Below, piece by piece: positions 211 to 35,729 of a stretch of DNA of 47,254 bases; the stretch's first letter is position 1, and each line of letters begins with the position of its first letter. The DNA is taken from the NCBI GenBank assembly GCA_026982395.1, contig JALSHD010000162.1, positions 1-47,254 of the forward strand. The letters run 5' to 3'. Source of the DNA: Chromatiales bacterium (GTDB lineage Bacteria > Pseudomonadota > Gammaproteobacteria > Thiohalospirales > Thiohalospiraceae). Both the position numbers and the translations under genes were made by a program. Under the pieces are notes generated by a model, which was given only the letters and a program-made list of their open reading frames with translations, had not been told where the DNA came from and made no database searches.

Positions 211-657
211 TATTTACCAGCCAAGTAAAACATAAACAGTGCTACCCAGCTAACTAGAAAAACAAACGGAAGAAAGATACCTAGTAAAACATTATTCCTT
301 GGCCAATGGTTTCGCTCGCTACTGTTTTCTGCATATTCTTTAAGATATGATTCTTCATTTTTTTCACACAGCTTTCGCTTAGCATGCCCAAGCGATGTAT
401 ATATCAACTTGGCATTAACTAATAACCATATTAGGTCTATGATACTGGCCAGTAGAAAAAGAACGATAATTTTTGCGCCAAGATCCGTTTCGATAGATGA
501 AATAAACACAAAATATGATGCAAAAAATATTGACTGTGCAACTAAAAAATTGTTGTTAATTGAAAGCAGCATCATGTTGTGATGTTTCACGTAATCGTAG
601 TAATAATCACTTCCCCTCATATTACCTCCTTACTACCTATGAATTATTTGAGGCTAA
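124..657 (-). mobile_element. integron gene cassette 1 (534 bp)
   Basis: The cassette runs on the minus strand from the crossover point G^TTAGCC at 658/657 to the G of the next core at 124. It holds one gene (210-620) and one attC (118-210), the standard one-gene-one-attC design. Orientation is also standard: the gene reads away from attI and intI. The borders rest on the matching core boxes, not on homology. Confidence 0.8.
210..620 (-). CDS. cassette-borne three-helix membrane protein, unknown function
   Basis: This 136-residue protein is encoded in the first integron cassette. It starts at ATG 620 behind a strong ribosome binding site, AAGGAGG, four bases upstream. Three hydrophobic helices are visible at about residues 25-43, 48-70 and 110-133. 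A charged, Lys/Glu-rich segment of about 40 residues separates helices 2 and 3 and is probably cytoplasmic. The N-terminus carries a Tyr-rich stretch (DYYYDY). I do not recognise the family. The layout (short N-terminus, two close helices, soluble loop, last helix) resembles small membrane effectors common in cassette arrays and defence loci, but that is only an analogy. The stop codon abuts attC. Base composition is AT-rich compared with the chromosomal genes further right, consistent with acquisition. Confidence 0.8.
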   Translation of the reverse strand: MRGSDYYYDYVKHHNMMLLSINNNFLVAQSIFFASYFVFISSIETDLGAKIIVLFLLASIIDLIWLLVNAKLIYTSLGHAKRKLCEKNEESYLKEYAENSSERNHWPRNNVLLGIFLPFVFLVSWVALFMFYLAGK

Positions 658-921
658 CTTTAACTCGACGTCAGATCGACGCGAAGTTTTATATCGAACT
701 GACGTATATCCCCGCTCTCCAAGCAGCCAATCCTGCTACGGTCATTTTTTGTTAAATATCTGTAATTCCAGTTACAAACAGGCTGTTTTTGTTCTTCTAT
801 GGTTTAACGTACCACCTTAAGCAAACAATATCGAGCATGTAATTACGTCATTCTTACAGAATATTACAAGTTAAATCAATATTCCAGAATATCGACATAT
901 TATTTATCAGGGAACGCATTC
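652..921 (+). other. attI core and intI promoter region
   Basis: The 301 bases between the cassette gene and intI hold the recombination border GGCTAAC (652-658), whose complement GTTAGCC is the attI/cassette junction. Just inside attI lies an inverted pair ACGTCAG (668-674) and CTGACGT (699-705), possibly integrase-binding sites. The rest is AT-rich and should carry the intI promoter and perhaps a cassette promoter. I cannot place -10/-35 boxes with confidence. I looked for a LexA box (CTG-N10-CAG) and found none with correct spacing. The intI ribosome binding site is AGGGAA at 909-914. Confidence 0.6.
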
Positions 922-1908
922 ATGACTCAAGGTAGATCTTCTCCTTTTCTTGATTCTGTTCGCGATTCGATGCGAGTCAGGCATTACAGCATCCGTACCG
1001 AGCAGGCTTATATTGGCTGGATTAAGCGATTTATACTTTTTCACAATAAGCGGCACCCCAGAGAACTTGGTGAACAAGAGGTGGTAGAGTTCCTTACGTA
1101 TCTTGCTGTTTCGAGAAAAGTGGCGCCGGGAACACAGAATCAGGCGTTTAATGCGCTTGTGTTCCTTTATAAGGTGGTATTGGGCCAACCGTTGGAGGAT
1201 CTTTCCGCTACCGTCAGGGCAAAGAAACCCCAAAAGCTGCCCGTTGTGCTAACGCCTCAGGAGGTAGGTGAGATATTGCGGCAACTTCATGGCCACTATT
1301 GGCTGGCCGCATGTTTGATGTATGGTTCGGGCCTGCGCCTGATGGAGTGTATGCGGCTCAGAGTCAAAGATCTCGACTTCAACCATCGCGCAATTGTGGT
1401 ACGCAATGGAAAAGGAGCGAAGGATCGGGTGGTGACACTGGCGGATGAATTGATGGTTCCCCTACAACGCCATCTGGAATCGGTAAAAATGATCCATGAA
1501 AAGGATCTCAAGGATGGTTTTGGTGCCGTTTATCTGCCTTATGCGCTGGAACGCAAGTATCCCAAGGCACCGACGGAATGGGGCTGGCAGTATTTGTTTC
1601 CCGCCGGGGAACGAAGTATTGATCCCCGCTCCGGTGTGGAGCGGCGTCACCACCTGGGGGAGCAATCAGTACAAAGGGCAATGAAAAAAGCCGTGCGTAA
1701 AGCCAACATTCACAAACCAGCCAGTTGTCATACCCTGCGCCACTCTTTTGCAACTCACTTGCTGGAAAGGGGAATGGATATCCGCACGGTTCAGGAGCAG
1801 TTGGGGCATTCCGATATCCGCACCACGCAAATCTATACTCATGTGCTCAAACGTGGTGGAAATGCCGTGATAAGCCCGTTAGGAGCCGTTGTTACTCGGG
1901 ATTCCTGA
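922..1908 (+). CDS. intI: integron integrase IntI
   Basis: This 328-residue tyrosine recombinase inserts and excises gene cassettes by recombining attI and attC sites. The N-terminal SAM-like DNA-binding domain spans about residues 7-95. The catalytic domain shows the full set: R139 ([13 protein letters not shown]), K164 or K167 (NGKGAKDR), H270-xx-R273 (HTLRH), H296 (LGHSDIR) and nucleophile Y305 (IYTHV). Between the Lys and His-x-x-Arg motifs it carries the extra segment that separates IntI from XerC/D (about residues 187-222, with [11 protein letters not shown] and EWGWQYLFP), which folds onto single-stranded attC. Length is normal. The start at ATG 922 follows AGGGAA. The gene points away from the cassette array, the standard geometry. 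All catalytic residues are present, so it is probably active. Confidence 0.95.
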
Positions 1909-3053: not shown

Positions 3054-3289
3054 CCAGGCTCCTTAGAGCACTCTGATATATTTTGACTCATGCCTTCTTT
3101 AATTGCTTCACGCATTCCGGGCACTGACAACAAATGTAGCGTTTCAGCAATTGCGTTCCAATCATCCTCGGAAACAAGGACAGCATTACCTCTTTTTCCT
3201 GTAATTACAATGGGTTGATGAGTCTCTGCCACCTCATCAATAAGACTATAGAGCTTAGAGCGAGCTTCTGTTGCATTCAATATTGTCAT
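3047..3289 (-). CDS. yefM: YefM/Phd-family antitoxin
   Basis: An 80-residue antitoxin of the YefM/Phd family. The N-terminal part (MTILNATEARSKLYSLIDEV, HQPIVITGKRGNAVLVSEDDW) is the conserved DNA-binding and dimer fold; the C-terminal acidic tail neutralises the toxin. The ATG at 3289 follows GAGGAGG-like purines about ten bases upstream. Such proteins repress their own promoter. The 60 bases upstream include a CGTACG palindrome (about 3323-3328) that could be part of an operator, but I cannot confirm it. It is the first gene of the orphan cassette. Confidence 0.88.
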   Translation of the reverse strand: MTILNATEARSKLYSLIDEVAETHQPIVITGKRGNAVLVSEDDWNAIAETLHLLSVPGMREAIKEGMSQNISECSKEPGW

Positions 3290-27482: not shown

Positions 27483-30188
27483 ATGAACAAACCTGAAAAC
27501 AAACCCCTCATTCTGGTGGATGGCTCCTCCTACCTGTATCGCGCCTTCCACGCCATGCCTTCATTGACCAACTCCAAAGGAGAGCCTACCGGCGCGGCTT
27601 ACGGGGTAATCAATATGTTGCGCAAGCTGCTCAACGACTACCAGCCGGAGCAGATTGCGGTGGTATTTGACGCCAAGGGAAAGACCTTCCGCGATGAGCT
27701 CTATCCAGAATACAAGGCGCACCGGCCGCCGATGCCGAAAGAGCTGCAGCAGCAGATCGAACCCATTCATGCCATTGTCCGGGCGATGGGACTACCGCTG
27801 TTGATGGTGGACGGGGTGGAGGCCGATGATGTGATCGGCACCCTGGCCCGGCAGGCGACGGAGCAAGGGATGGAGACGGTGATCTCCACCGGGGACAAGG
27901 ATCTGGCCCAGCTGGTGAATGAGCACGTCACCCTGATCAACACCATGAACAACACCGAGCTGAATCCGCAGACGGTGGTGGAGAAATTCGGTGTTCCCCC
28001 GGACAGAATCGTGGATTACCTTGCCCTGATCGGTGACAGTGTGGATAACATTCCCGGCGTACCCAAAGTGGGCCCCAAGACGGCACAGAAGTGGCTGCAG
28101 AAATACGGCGGCCTGGACGAAATCATCGCCCATGCCGACGAAATCAAGGGAAAGGTGGGAGAAAACCTGCGCGCCAGCCTGGAGCAGCTCCCCCTCTCCC
28201 GCCAGCTGGTCACCATCAAGCAGGATGTGGATCTGCCGGTCAAACCGGAACAGCTCACCCGCCAGCCACCGGACACAGCGACACTACGCAAACTCTATCA
28301 GCAACTGGAGTTCCGATCCTGGCTGGAGGAGCTGCTGGCCAACAGCGACGCCGATCCGGATCCTGACAGCACAGGGGATGACCCGGAATACCAGATTATC
28401 ACCAGCCAACAGGAGTTTGAGCAGTGGTATCAACGCTTGGCTGCAGCGGAGCTGTTTGCCTTCGACACCGAGACCACCAGCCTGAACTATATGCAGGCCG
28501 AGATTGTCGGCGTCTCTTTTGCTGTCCAGCCGGGAGAAGCAGCCTATCTTCCCTTGGGCCACGACTATCCCGATGCCCCGCCGCAGCTGCCGCGTGAGGA
28601 GATTCTGCAGCGCCTCAAACCCCTGCTGGAGGATCCGGCCAAGGCCAAGCTGGGCCAGCACCTCAAATATGACATGAACGTGCTGGCCAACTACGGGATC
28701 AACCTGCAGGGTGTGCGCTACGACACCATGCTGGAGTCCTACGTGCTGGACAGTACCGCCACCCGCCACGACATGGACTCCCTGGCACTCAAATATCTGG
28801 GCTGCAGCACCATCCACTACGAGGATGTGGCCGGCAAAGGGGCAAAACAGTTGAGTTTCAACCAGGTTCCTCTGGAGCAGGCCGGCCCGTATGCTGCAGA
28901 AGACGCCGATATCACCCTGCGTCTGCACCAGGTACTGTGGCCCCGGCTATGTGAACAACCCCTGCTCAAACAGCTGTTCGAGGAGGTAGAGATCCCTCTG
29001 GTGCCGGTCCTGTCGGCCATCGAGCGCAATGGTGTACTGGTGGATGTGGAACTGCTGCGCCGGCAGAGCCAAGAGCTGACAGAAAAAATTGCCGGGATTG
29101 AGCAGGAGGCCCATCAGATGGCCGGAGAGGTTTTCAATCTTGGCTCCCCCAAGCAGATCCAGAATATTCTCTACAACAAACTGGAGCTGCCGGTAAAGGC
29201 CAAAACCCCCAAGGGCCAGCCATCCACCGCCGAGTCCGTCCTGCAGGAGCTGGCGCTGGACTATCCGCTACCCCAGCTGATCCTGGAGTATCGGGGCATG
29301 AGCAAGCTCAAATCCACCTATACCGACAAGCTGCCGGAGCTCATCGACCCGGCGACCGGGCGGATCCACACCTCCTACCACCAGGCAGTAGCGGCCACCG
29401 GGCGGCTCTCCTCCTCTGACCCGAACCTGCAGAACATCCCCGTGCGTACGGCAGAAGGGCGGCGTATCCGCCAAGCCTTTATCGCTGCACCGGGAAACCG
29501 CATCGTCTCTGCCGACTACTCCCAGATCGAGCTGCGCATCATGGCGCACCTGTCGGATGACCCACGCCTGCTGGAGGCCTTTGCCGCTGGTGAAGATATC
29601 CATCGCGCCACCGCCGCCGAGGTGTTCGGTGTCTCCCTGGAACAGGTGACCACCGAGCAGCGCCGCAGCGCCAAGGCGATCAACTTCGGGCTTATCTACG
29701 GAATGTCCGCCTTCGGCCTGGCCAGGCAGCTGGGTATCGAGCGTGGCGCCGCCCAGGAGTATGTCAACCGCTATTTCGAACGCTACCCCGGTGTGAAGCG
29801 CTTTATGGACAGCACCCGCGAGCAGGCAAAGCAGCAGGGATATGTGGAAACGGTGTTCGGCCGCCGCCTCTATCTGCCCGAGATAAACGCTGCCAACGCC
29901 CAGCGCCGCCAGTATGCCGAGCGCACAGCGATCAACGCCCCCATGCAGGGTTCAGCCGCAGACATCATCAAGCGCGCCATGATCGATATCCATCACTGGC
30001 TACAACGGGGTAGAGTGGCAGCCCGCATGATCATGCAGGTACATGACGAACTGGTATTCGAAGTGAGCCAGGCAGAGGTGGACAGCCTGTGCAAGCAACT
30101 GCGGCAGCGGATGGCCAATGCCGCCGACCTGAAAGTGCCACTGATAGTGGATGTTGGAGTTGGAGAGAACTGGGATCAGGCGCATTAA
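27483..30188 (+). CDS. polA: DNA polymerase I
   Basis: A 901-residue DNA polymerase I, used for Okazaki-fragment processing and repair. The 5'-3' exonuclease domain spans about residues 1-290 ([32 protein letters not shown]). The proofreading exonuclease keeps its catalytic [11 protein letters not shown]. The polymerase domain has [30 protein letters not shown] and [10 protein letters not shown]. The start is ATG 27483; a longer upstream frame runs through the repeat and is rejected. It overlaps the gltX stop by four bases in convergent orientation. Confidence 0.98.
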
Positions 30189-31597
30189 ACAGCAGTACCT
30201 TGCGCCTCAATCCAGGCAATGGCGCGCTCAATCCGTTGAACAGTACGCTCCCGGCCCAGCAGTTCAAGAGTAATATCAATAGGCGGTGAAACCGGGCCAC
30301 CAGCCACGGCAACCCGCAATGGTTGAGCAATTTTCCCGAGTTTCAATTCCCGCAGCTCGGCGGTTTCCACCACGACCTTGTGAATCGCCTCACTTGACCA
30401 GTCCGGCAACGCTTTAAAAGCGTCAAGCATATCGGCAAGCGCTTCTACTGCTGCCGGTTTGAGATTTTTACGGGCGGCCTTCTCATCATAGCAATCAAAA
30501 TCCCGATAGAAAAATGCGCTGTTCTGCGCCATCTCCACCAATGTCTTGGTTCGCTCCCGCTGTACTTTGACTACCTCCACCAGTTCAGGACCATCAACCG
30601 GATCGATATCCAGTCTGCCCATCTGGTAACTCAAATGGTGGGCTACATGCGCAGGATCGCTATTCATGATGTATTGATGGTTCAACCACAGCAGCTTTTC
30701 GCTGTTAAAGGTGGATGCGGCCTTGTTGACATCCTTGATATCAAACAGCGAGATCATCTCATCCAGGGAAAACAGCTCACGATCTCCATAGGACCAGCCC
30801 AGCCGCACCAGGTAATTGAGCAGTGCCTCGGGCAGAAAACCGTCCTCCCGATACTGCATGACACTGACAGCACCATGACGCTTGGAAAGACGTTTGCCGT
30901 CATCGCCAAGAATCATCGGGACATGGGCATACTGCGGAAGTTCCGCTCCCAGGGCCTTGAGAATATTGATCTGGCGTGGTGTATTGTTGATGTGATCATC
31001 GCCACGGATCACATGGGTCACCCCCATATCCAGATCATCTACCACCACGGTCAGATTGTAGGTAGGAGTACCATCGGAGCGGGCAATAATGAGATCGTCC
31101 AGTTCACTGTTATTGAACACGATCTTGCCTCGCACCAAGTCATCGACAATAACCGCGCCTTCCACCGGATTACGGAAACGAATCACCGGATTCACCCCTT
31201 CACGCGGCTCGGCGCCCGGACGGCAGCACCCATTGTAACGAGGTTTCTCCTTGCGCCCCATCTGCTCGGCACGCATCCGCTCCAGCTCCTCTTTGGTACA
31301 GTAACAACGATAGGCATCTCCACTATCGAGCAGTTGCTGAATCACCTCCTTGTAGCGATCAAACCGTTCCGTCTGGTAAATCGGGCCTTCATCGTACTCC
31401 AGTCCCAACCAGGTCATCCCTTCCAGGATCGCATTAACTGACTCGATGGTAGAGCGTTCAATATCGGTATCTTCAATACGCAAAATAAATCTTCCGCCAT
31501 GTTTGCGCGCGTGCAACCAGGAAAACAGCGCCGTGCGCGCACCGCCAACATGCAGATAACCGGTAGGGCTGGGGGCAAAACGGGTTCGAGTACTCAT
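30185..31597 (-). CDS. gltX: glutamyl-tRNA synthetase
   Basis: A 470-residue class I synthetase that charges tRNA-Glu. The HIGH-type motif is [14 protein letters not shown] and the KMSKS-type motif is KRLSKRHG. The zinc-site segment keeps three Cys ([10 protein letters not shown] through NGCCR). Length is normal. Its ATG at 31597 is divergent from the tRNA-Val gene. It converges on polA. Confidence 0.98.
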
Positions 31598-31659
31598 AGA
31601 ATTCTTTCAATCCAGTCCAGGAAAAGGGATATTCTACTCGCCCCTTGCAATTCTGTGAA

Positions 31660-31688
31660 TTGACGCCCCCCCTTCCCGGCCGTAGAAT
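31660..31688 (+). promoter_or_regulatory. sigma-70 promoter of tRNA-Val
   Basis: TTGACG (31660-31665) and TAGAAT (31683-31688) are separated by exactly 17 bases, close to the ideal sigma-70 promoter. Transcription would start near 31695, a few bases before the mature tRNA at 31702. Confidence 0.75.
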
Positions 31689-31701
31689 TCGGTTTTCATC
31701 G

Positions 31702-31776
31702 GGGCGATTGGCTCAACGGGAGAGCACTGCCTTCACACGGCAGGGGTCACTGGTTCGAACCCAGTATCGCCCACCA
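31702..31776 (+). tRNA. tRNA-Val (anticodon CAC)
   Basis: The sequence folds as a full cloverleaf: acceptor GGGCGAT / ATCGCCC, D stem GCTC/GAGC, anticodon stem CTGCC/GGCAG around loop TTCACAC (anticodon CAC, read as Val GTG), variable loop GGGTC, T stem ACTGG/CCAGT with loop TTCGAAC, discriminator A, and encoded CCA. All stems pair without mismatch. The gene stands alone with its own promoter. Confidence 0.96.
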
Positions 31777-31794
31777 TTCAAAGCCCCGTGCAGA

Positions 31795-32309
31795 CTATTG
31801 GCTTGCAGAATCTGCATCCCGTTCGGAAGAACGAAGCAATTCCCTGTCATCCCGCTCCCGTATAAGCCAGTAGACAGCCCCAAGTGCAACCATGCTCAGC
31901 GCCAGTGCAGCAAGCGTCGGAGCACCCATCTCCTTGGCATCCAGAATAATAAATTTGCGGGACAGTGCCAGCAAAGCGATGAGCAGTACCGTTTTGACCT
32001 GAATAATATGCGCCTTGCGCTCAAGCACCTGTATAATCGAATGCTTGAACTCCATGGCTATTAGCAAGGTCATGATCATTCCGAATATACTCTGGAAAAC
32101 CGCATGATCCAGCGGGTCAAATGCTTCCAGCACCAGAACCTTGAACACCTCAGCCCCGAGCCGCCACAGTGCCACCACAGTGCCACCACAATGATGACAG
32201 AGATCAAGCCGGTAAGGATCAACGCTACAGCATGCTCAAAGCGCTCATAGAAAGTCATCACTGACCAGTGCTTGAACAAGGCGGCTATAACTCGTTTTAT
32301 CTGTGACAT
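31795..32309 (-). pseudogene. PsiE-family membrane protein, broken by an 11-bp duplication
   Basis: Two overlapping frames together read as one PsiE-family (phosphate-starvation-inducible, DUF) membrane protein. The first part, from ATG 32309, begins MSQIKRVIAALFKHW and runs to SVIIVVALWWHC. The second resumes with VALWRLGAEVFKVLVLEAF. At the switch the 11-bp unit CCACAGTGCCA occurs twice in tandem (32164-32185). Removing one copy gives a 167-residue protein in a single frame, with about four membrane helices. The ATG has GAGGGTG upstream. The gene is therefore inactive as read, but the lesion is so simple that it is probably recent, or it may flip back by slippage. A sequencing artefact is also possible. 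Confidence 0.85.
32164..32185. repeat. 11-bp tandem duplication
   Basis: CCACAGTGCCA is repeated exactly, head to tail. A partial third unit (CCACA) follows. It causes the frameshift in the psiE-like gene. Confidence 0.95.
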
Positions 32310-32440
32310 GGTTTCACCCTCAACAATCAGCAAAACAAATCACATAACCAATCAACTTATACTGTAGACAATTGAAGTACAGGAAAAAATCCTCTTTATT
32401 TTCCGGCTGTAGAGGCTTGTTTAATCAGAGCGTAATAATA

Positions 32441-32466
32441 AAAAAACCCGCCACAAAGGGCGGGTT
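32441..32466 (-). terminator. rho-independent terminator of the small gene at 32490
   Basis: On the minus strand AACCCGCC and GGCGGGTT form an 8-bp stem with a six-base loop, followed by a T run. It lies 24 bases after the stop of the 58-residue gene and separates it from the psiE-like gene. Confidence 0.85.
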
Positions 32467-32489
32467 GTTCTCTCTCACCAAGGGAAAAA

Positions 32490-32666
32490 TCAGTTCGATA
32501 CCGTACAAGCTGTCTCTTCCTTGATTAAACCGGCTTCAACGGCATCAATCGCTTTTTGGTCATGCTCATTCACCGGACAGCCACAGCTATACCCCTCTTT
32601 GGTGGCATGAAGCCGTGCCTGTTCAATATGCCATTGAGCAACTTTCAGGTGTTGATCTACATTCAT
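32490..32666 (-). CDS. small Cys-containing protein, unknown
   Basis: A 58-residue soluble protein, start ATG 32666 with AGAGGAAA upstream and a strong terminator downstream, so it is a real gene of its own. It holds a CGCP motif (YSCGCPVNEHDQKAID) and a third Cys near the C-terminus, which might bind a metal. The amphipathic N-terminal helix begins MNVDQHLKVAQWHIEQ. I do not recognise the family. A longer frame upstream would add 50 residues but lacks the signals and is rejected. Confidence 0.7.
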   Translation of the reverse strand: MNVDQHLKVAQWHIEQARLHATKEGYSCGCPVNEHDQKAIDAVEAGLIKEETACTVSN

Positions 32667-32995
32667 TCTGCTTTTCCTCTTAATCAAGTCAATTCCAAAA
32701 CAATAGTTGAGTTTTTTACTCGGGTAATAGATGTTATCACAAATAAAATTGAAAAGTAAGATTCTGAAAATCGAAGACCAATCCTCAAAAAGCCAAAAAC
32801 CTGCAGGCCGATCCACTTCTGTTTTTTCCCAGGAAAAAACCCGGAAAACTCTGGATTAACGGGTCGCGATGGAAAGCTGAAGCAAAGCCATTTGCGGAGT
32901 CCGGGTCAGCCCATGTTTCCTCATCTATCCATCCCCCAAAAGCGGGGTGGGCAGTTCAAATGCATGAGGGTCAAAGATTCGGCAATACGAAACCT

Positions 32996-35639: not shown

Positions 35640-35717
35640 AAGGCACCCCAAAAAAATGGTCATTTACACACGTAAACTCACATTTATTGCCTTGAACTGG
35701 CATATTTCGGGAACAAA

Positions 35718-35729
35718 CTGAGTAGTTAC
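35718..35729. repeat. copy of the GTAACTACTCAG repeat
   Basis: CTGAGTAGTTAC occurs here in the gap between the second TPM gene and the DUF3135 gene. The same 12-mer, reversed, recurs at 39715 and 42765. Confidence 0.6.

What the first reader, a model, noticed from the sequence alone, without database searches (positions are those of the whole stretch)
32164..32185. 11-bp tandem duplication that breaks a psiE-family gene
Removing one unit restores a 167-residue reading frame exactly. Such a simple repeat could revert by slippage, so it may act as an on/off switch, or mark a very recent loss, or an assembly error.
Basis: seen in the sequence. Interest (0 to 1): 0.5.

Follow-up and report, generated by a model that had tools for sequence, protein, structure and literature searches.

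The report
Recent 11-bp duplication breaks PsiE-family gene
A copying slip seems to have duplicated 11 bases in one bacterium's gene for a small membrane protein and broken its reading frame; the related bacteria compared carry the gene unbroken, so this looks like an ordinary recent gene loss rather than a built-in on/off switch.

Summary
An 11-bp unit is repeated exactly (16-base run at lag 11, window 32164-32190, gene on the minus strand) and splits a PsiE-family (PF06146) gene into a 77-aa frame and a 127-aa frame. Nine of nine aligned relatives lack the extra 11 bp and have one open frame. Both halves still look constrained, carry no further lesion and have changed only slightly more than in the closest relative, so the event, if real, is recent compared with the split from that species. 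An imperfect partial copy adjoins the unit (2.8 copies), a usual setting for replication slippage. In a 264,854-base sample of this genome it is the only exact tandem duplication (unit 9-119) that breaks a frame inside a gene. Best reading: a recent slippage-made loss-of-function allele, revertible in principle, in a genome with one intact PsiE-family paralogue. A selected on/off switch is not supported: the tract is not shared by relatives, and neither reads nor a second isolate could be examined. An assembly error is unlikely but not excluded.

The parts
32164..32190 (-). Exact period-11 run: two complete 11-bp units (32164-32185) plus 5 further matching bases; the out-of-frame duplication
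   Evidence: extra 11 bp absent in 9 of 9 aligned relatives
32076..32309 (-). Upstream part of the broken PsiE-family gene: ATG 32309 to the premature stop 32076-32078 (77 aa: about 45 residues that align with the relatives, through most of the first membrane helix, then about 32 out-of-frame residues)
31795..32178 (-). Downstream part of the broken gene, open from GTG 32178 (127 aa, three of the four hydrophobic stretches); PF06146 102.8 bits
31702..31776 (+). Neighbouring tRNA-Val(CAC), context only; also next to the intact orthologue in G004
30185..31597 (-). Neighbouring 470-aa ORF, context only (glutamyl-tRNA synthetase-like; name recalled, not searched)

Best explanation
A recent loss-of-function allele of a PsiE-family membrane-protein gene. 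Inferred: during replication a strand slipped between the 11-bp stretch and the similar bases that follow it, and 11 bases were copied twice. Shown in the sequence: because 11 is not a multiple of three, the frame breaks within the first membrane helix; about a quarter of the protein is left in one frame and three quarters in another. Inferred: no full-length protein is made; the loss is tolerated, perhaps because an intact PsiE-family paralogue remains; the allele can revert at a low rate like any short tandem duplication, without being a selected switch.
For: Exact duplication, far above chance. 9 of 9 aligned relatives (the 9 strongest of the 19 other places) have no extra 11 bp and keep open frames of 137-174 aa from the start codons I chose. 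The array is 2.8 copies, so an imperfect partial copy adjoins the unit; in the 9 relatives the longest same-lag runs are 6-8 bases and none of the three longest in any gene is at lag 11. Pieces against the closest relative G004: dN/dS 0.107/0.779 (39 codons) and 0.116/0.909 (122 codons); with outgroup L004, residues unique to the window 9, to G004 6. Own genome: one PsiE-family gene with an open 170-aa frame on C31. G006 (96% complete) shows no orthologue, and the gene beside its copy of the downstream small ORF is a different one. PMC4169377 (passages): tandem duplications of 9-60 bp arise in a coding sequence, 3 of 11 bordered by 3-8-base direct repeats, and two tested ones revert (3.6e-5 for a 60-bp unit, 9.3e-7 for a shorter one).
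Against: No reads or second isolate were examined, so the allele's frequency is unknown. The excess of changes in the window lineage (nucleotides 41:33, residues 9:6 with outgroup L004; 36:26 and 8:4 with L005; 33:29 and 5:3 with L007) has one sign but is too small to show relaxed selection. Retained conservation would also fit a gene that is mostly intact (switch) or an assembly error. G006's gltX-tRNA contig is only 3,049 bases, so the gene's absence there is likely, not proven. In one spontaneous-mutation spectrum none of the four multi-base insertions looked like a duplication (PMC2788575, passage).
Confidence: 0.74

Rival explanations
1. Assembly or sequencing artefact: the cells carry one unit and the gene is intact.
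For: The window is a contig of a 193-contig draft genome; the gene looks otherwise intact and constrained, as expected if it were never broken; 9 of 9 aligned relatives have no second unit.
Against: The tract (27 bp exact, 31 bp in all) is much shorter than a usual read, and errors at tandem repeats are expected to collapse rather than expand copies (PMC12817950, passage, about longer units). No second broken gene stood out by eye among the window's ORFs (no systematic frameshift test was made).
Confidence: 0.12
2. Reversible on/off switch (phase variation): slippage between one and two units turns the gene on and off in the population and is kept by selection.
For: Duplications inside a gene are a known reversible state: PMC4243769 (passages) speaks of spontaneous, reversible sequence duplication in pneumococcal capsule genes. 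Both halves are still conserved.
Against: Tract absent in 9 of 9 aligned relatives; only two complete units; no other exact frame-breaking tandem duplication inside a gene in a 264,854-base sample (the one other out-of-frame unit there is intergenic). A search for PsiE with phase variation found 15 papers, 14 listed, none with a title on such a switch (listing only).
Confidence: 0.06
3. The downstream frame is translated on its own from GTG 32178, which lies inside the repeat, and gives a working, shortened protein.
For: The 127-aa frame covers PF06146 positions 15-121 of 122 and three of four hydrophobic stretches.
Against: By eye, no clear ribosome-binding site precedes GTG 32178, only a G-rich stretch (sequence). 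In the model of the G004 orthologue the first membrane helix is residues 20-56 (mean pLDDT 71), and more than half of it would be missing; the motif ERFE before it (residues 22-25) is invariant in the 9 aligned orthologues.
Confidence: 0.06

Closest known systems
Spontaneous reversible sequence duplications in pneumococcal capsule genes (Waite et al. 2001, 2003; seen only as described and cited in passages of PMC4243769)
   Same: A duplication inside an open reading frame stops gene function and is described as reversible.
   Different: Here reversal was not and could not be observed. A capsule locus there; a PsiE-family gene with a paralogue here.
De novo tandem repeats in a beta-lactamase gene of Burkholderia thailandensis (PMC4169377, passages)
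   Same: Units of 9-60 bp within a gene, 3 of 11 bordered by short direct repeats and explained by replication slippage.
   Different: Those change an enzyme's substrate range rather than abolish the protein and were selected in the laboratory; this one is out of frame.
PsiE family, PF06146
   Same: Downstream piece 102.8 bits against a cut-off of 23.9; the intact G004 orthologue 105.9 bits and modelled with four long helices.
   Different: The frame is broken. Not E. coli-type PsiE: NCBIfam equivalog score 24.5 for the piece and 28.7, 31.1 and 30.1 for three intact orthologues, cut-off 138.
Contingency loci with simple sequence repeats (Haemophilus, Neisseria; listing, otherwise recalled)
   Same: A repeat whose copy number sets the reading frame.
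   Different: Here only 2.8 copies, a long unit, and no sharing of the tract with relatives.

Membership tests
PsiE family (PF06146) | Score above the curated Pfam cut-off | tested here: met
   102.8 bits against 23.9 for the downstream piece; 107.3 bits in the whole-genome search
PsiE family (PF06146) | One uninterrupted frame covering the domain | tested here: not met
   Frame broken at 32164-32190; profile positions 15-121 of 122 in one frame, the start in another
PsiE equivalog of E. coli type (NCBIfam NF002763) | Score above the equivalog cut-off | tested here: not met
   24.5 bits against 138 for the piece; intact orthologues of G004, G001 and G003 also far below, 28.7, 31.1, 30.1
Phase-variable contingency locus | Repeat unit length not a multiple of three, inside the gene | tested here: met
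   11 bp, within the gene
Phase-variable contingency locus | Repeat tract maintained among related genomes | tested here: not met
   0 of 9 aligned relatives have the extra unit or any exact tandem duplication with a unit of 7-59 bases in the gene
Phase-variable contingency locus | Both states observed in one population, switching at high rate | not testable with these tools
   No reads; one genome per species held
Slippage-made tandem duplication (pneumococcal or beta-lactamase type) | Exact tandem copy beside a short direct repeat | tested here: met
   2.8 copies at 95% match: an imperfect partial copy adjoins the two exact units. That this partial copy was there before the duplication is inferred.
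Slippage-made tandem duplication (pneumococcal or beta-lactamase type) | Precise loss of the extra unit observed | not testable with these tools
   Needs reads or culture

The most novel reading that the evidence does not exclude
The 11-bp repeat is a young, revertible on/off allele of a PsiE-family membrane protein that is kept at intermediate frequency in the natural population: a phase-variable PsiE-family gene built from a single slippage event rather than from an inherited repeat tract.
Probability: 0.06. Interest if true: 0.45.

Novelty: new member of a known kind. Interest (0 to 1): 0.15.

Why it matters
As found, it is a clean example of gene inactivation by a short tandem duplication caught early, with the broken frame, the adjoining imperfect repeat and the intact relatives all visible. 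It matters mainly as a caution: a revertible repeat in one assembly is not evidence of a switch. If reads from the source sample showed both states at high frequency, it would be a switch in a family whose function is poorly known (the last point recalled).

Tried and rejected
Repeat tract shared in the genus: rejected; 9 of 9 aligned relatives lack it. The other 10 of the 19 further places (9 in other genomes, 1 on own contig C31) were not aligned: they are weaker matches (E 8.3e-11 to 6.6e-9) and look like other paralogue groups.

Genome rich in frame-breaking tandem repeats: rejected for the sample. In 264,854 bases (window plus 11 stretches, 9.7% of 2,724,414) there are 7 exact tandem duplications with a unit of 9-119: five of 9 bp (in frame), one of 13 bp, and this one. 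The 13-bp one (L078 3138-3163) lies between two ORFs that end at 3057 and 3208, so it is intergenic. The stretches were contig starts, chosen because those contigs were known to be long enough, not at random. Imperfect duplications were not counted.

Second copy of the same gene in the assembly: none found (the other own match, on C31, is 36% identical).

Programmed ribosomal frameshifting: considered and rejected by inspection only (no homopolymer or X XXY YYZ site seen at the tract).

Age: a rough neutral model gives 2.8 extra amino-acid changes if 2% of the branch since the split from G004 was unconstrained and 14 if 10%; the observed excess is 2 to 4 by outgroup. The counts include the poorly aligned C-terminal tail. 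Hence 'recent', with a wide margin.

Conserved gene order as support for orthology: only partly. The block is the same in G004. In G001 the gltX-like gene, tRNA-Val, small ORF and psiE-like gene are on one contig in another order. In G003 the psiE-like gene is about 30 kb from gltX, in G002 and G007 on other contigs. Orthology there rests on sequence.

Literature: ten searches. Isolate names of two relatives: 0 papers. cap3A with tandem duplication and capsule: 0 papers, so the pneumococcal work was seen only through passages of PMC4243769.

The viral, phage, plasmid and E. coli collections were not searched; they seemed unlikely to bear on this gene.

Full report
What is there. On the minus strand of the window a gene starts at ATG 32309, and its family sequence runs on to the stop at 31795-31797. 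At 32164-32190 an 11-bp unit is repeated exactly (16-base run at lag 11); Tandem Repeats Finder calls 32160-32190 with 2.8 copies. Because 11 is not a multiple of three, the first frame ends at 32076-32078 after 77 aa, and the rest of the protein lies in another frame, open from GTG 32178 (127 aa). That part matches PF06146 PsiE with 102.8 bits against a cut-off of 23.9, profile positions 15-121 of 122. It is not an E. coli-type PsiE equivalog: 24.5 bits for the piece and 28.7, 31.1 and 30.1 for three intact orthologues, against 138. By chance an exact 11-bp tandem duplication is expected 0.01 times in a shuffled window (200 shuffles).

Relatives. The window is contig C162 of a 2.72-Mb draft genome in 193 contigs, 96.87% complete. 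A search of 56 genomes, the own one included, with the downstream piece found 20 places in 15 genomes. I aligned the 9 strongest places outside the genome itself: G001-G005 and G007 of the same genus, and G020, G037 and G046 of the same class. All 9 lack the 11 extra bases at this point and have open frames of 137-174 aa. The closest relative, G004, shares the block of gltX-like gene (name recalled), tRNA-Val, psiE-like gene and downstream small ORF over window 30209-32760 at 84% DNA identity; in G001 the order differs, and in G002, G003 and G007 the psiE-like gene lies elsewhere. From matching contig lengths (13,748 and 13,767 bases) G004 and G001 appear to be the MAGs Dive96_bin10.247 and S012_118, both titled only 'Gammaproteobacteria bacterium'. 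G006 (96% complete) shows no orthologue; beside its small ORF lies a different gene, but its gltX-tRNA contig is only 3,049 bases long, so absence is likely rather than proven.

How old. The two pieces were compared apart. Against G004, dN/dS is 0.107/0.779 (39 codons) and 0.116/0.909 (122 codons). With outgroup L004 the window has 41 unique nucleotide changes and G004 33; unique residues 9 and 6. With L005 the numbers are 36:26 and 8:4, with L007 33:29 and 5:3 (the two pieces summed). The window is slightly ahead each time, never by much. A rough model puts the unconstrained part of the branch at a few per cent, under about a tenth. No further stop or indel is seen in the two pieces. The break is therefore recent relative to the species split, or it is not real, or the gene is usually intact; sequence alone cannot separate these.

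How it arose. In the direction of the gene the two exact units are followed by an imperfect partial copy (2.8 copies in all, 95% match). Slippage between neighbouring repeats is a usual way for a short tandem duplication to form; in PMC4169377 (passages) three of eleven laboratory duplications were bordered by direct repeats of 3-8 bases, and reversion ran at 3.6e-5 for a 60-bp unit and 9.3e-7 for a shorter one. A unit of 11 bp would be expected to revert no faster (inference).

Switch or loss. A selected switch predicts a maintained tract, more units, or similar tracts elsewhere. The tract is absent in 9 of 9 aligned relatives. In a 264,854-base sample of the genome there are 7 exact tandem duplications with a unit of 9-119; five are of 9 bp and in frame, one of 13 bp is intergenic, and this one alone breaks a gene. 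Reversible duplications in pneumococcal capsule genes (PMC4243769, passages) show that such an allele can act as a switch, so the reading is possible, but nothing here speaks for it beyond that.

What is lost. The modelled G004 orthologue (AlphaFold2, mean pLDDT 71.4, pTM 0.52) has an N-terminal helix and four long helices, 20-56, 65-94, 101-118 and 126-164. The duplication falls inside the first long helix (about residues 40-45). The genome has two other PsiE-family places: one on C31 with an open 170-aa frame, and one on C16 whose frame carries stop codons. So of three PsiE-family genes in this genome one is clearly intact.

Verdict. Observation confirmed; 'very recent loss' most likely; 'switch' unsupported; 'assembly error' unlikely but open until reads are checked.

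Noticed in passing
L030 (own genome, contig C16), about 240-1160, minus strand: Another PsiE-domain gene of the same genome reads in pieces: an N-terminal piece that matches Protoglobin (PF11563, 58.1 bits against 25) and a PsiE piece, with in-frame stop codons at L030 804-806 and 333-335. A relative (G001 contig C286, L047) has a 398-aa open frame over the same region. A protoglobin-PsiE fusion, apparently broken here.
   Followed up: partly
window 35653-35729: An interspersed repeat of about 77 bp: 23 places in the own genome including this one, 19 rows in G001 and 16 in G004 (only 40 candidates of each genome were scored), with no Rfam match. The other 22 own copies match at 73-86% identity. 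Ten aligned copies share a core; the window copy folds with z-score -1.97 on the + strand and -0.95 on the - strand. REP- or MITE-like (recalled).
   Followed up: partly
window 32310-32420: Stretches upstream of the broken gene are well conserved with G004 by eye (alignment), although silent sites in the gene are near dS 0.8-0.9; perhaps promoter or operator.
   Followed up: no
L084 (G006 contig C13), near its end after the tRNA-Val gene: The DNA resembles the reverse strand of an IS200-type transposase gene (recalled, not searched); it may explain the contig break and the missing psiE-like gene in G006.
   Followed up: no
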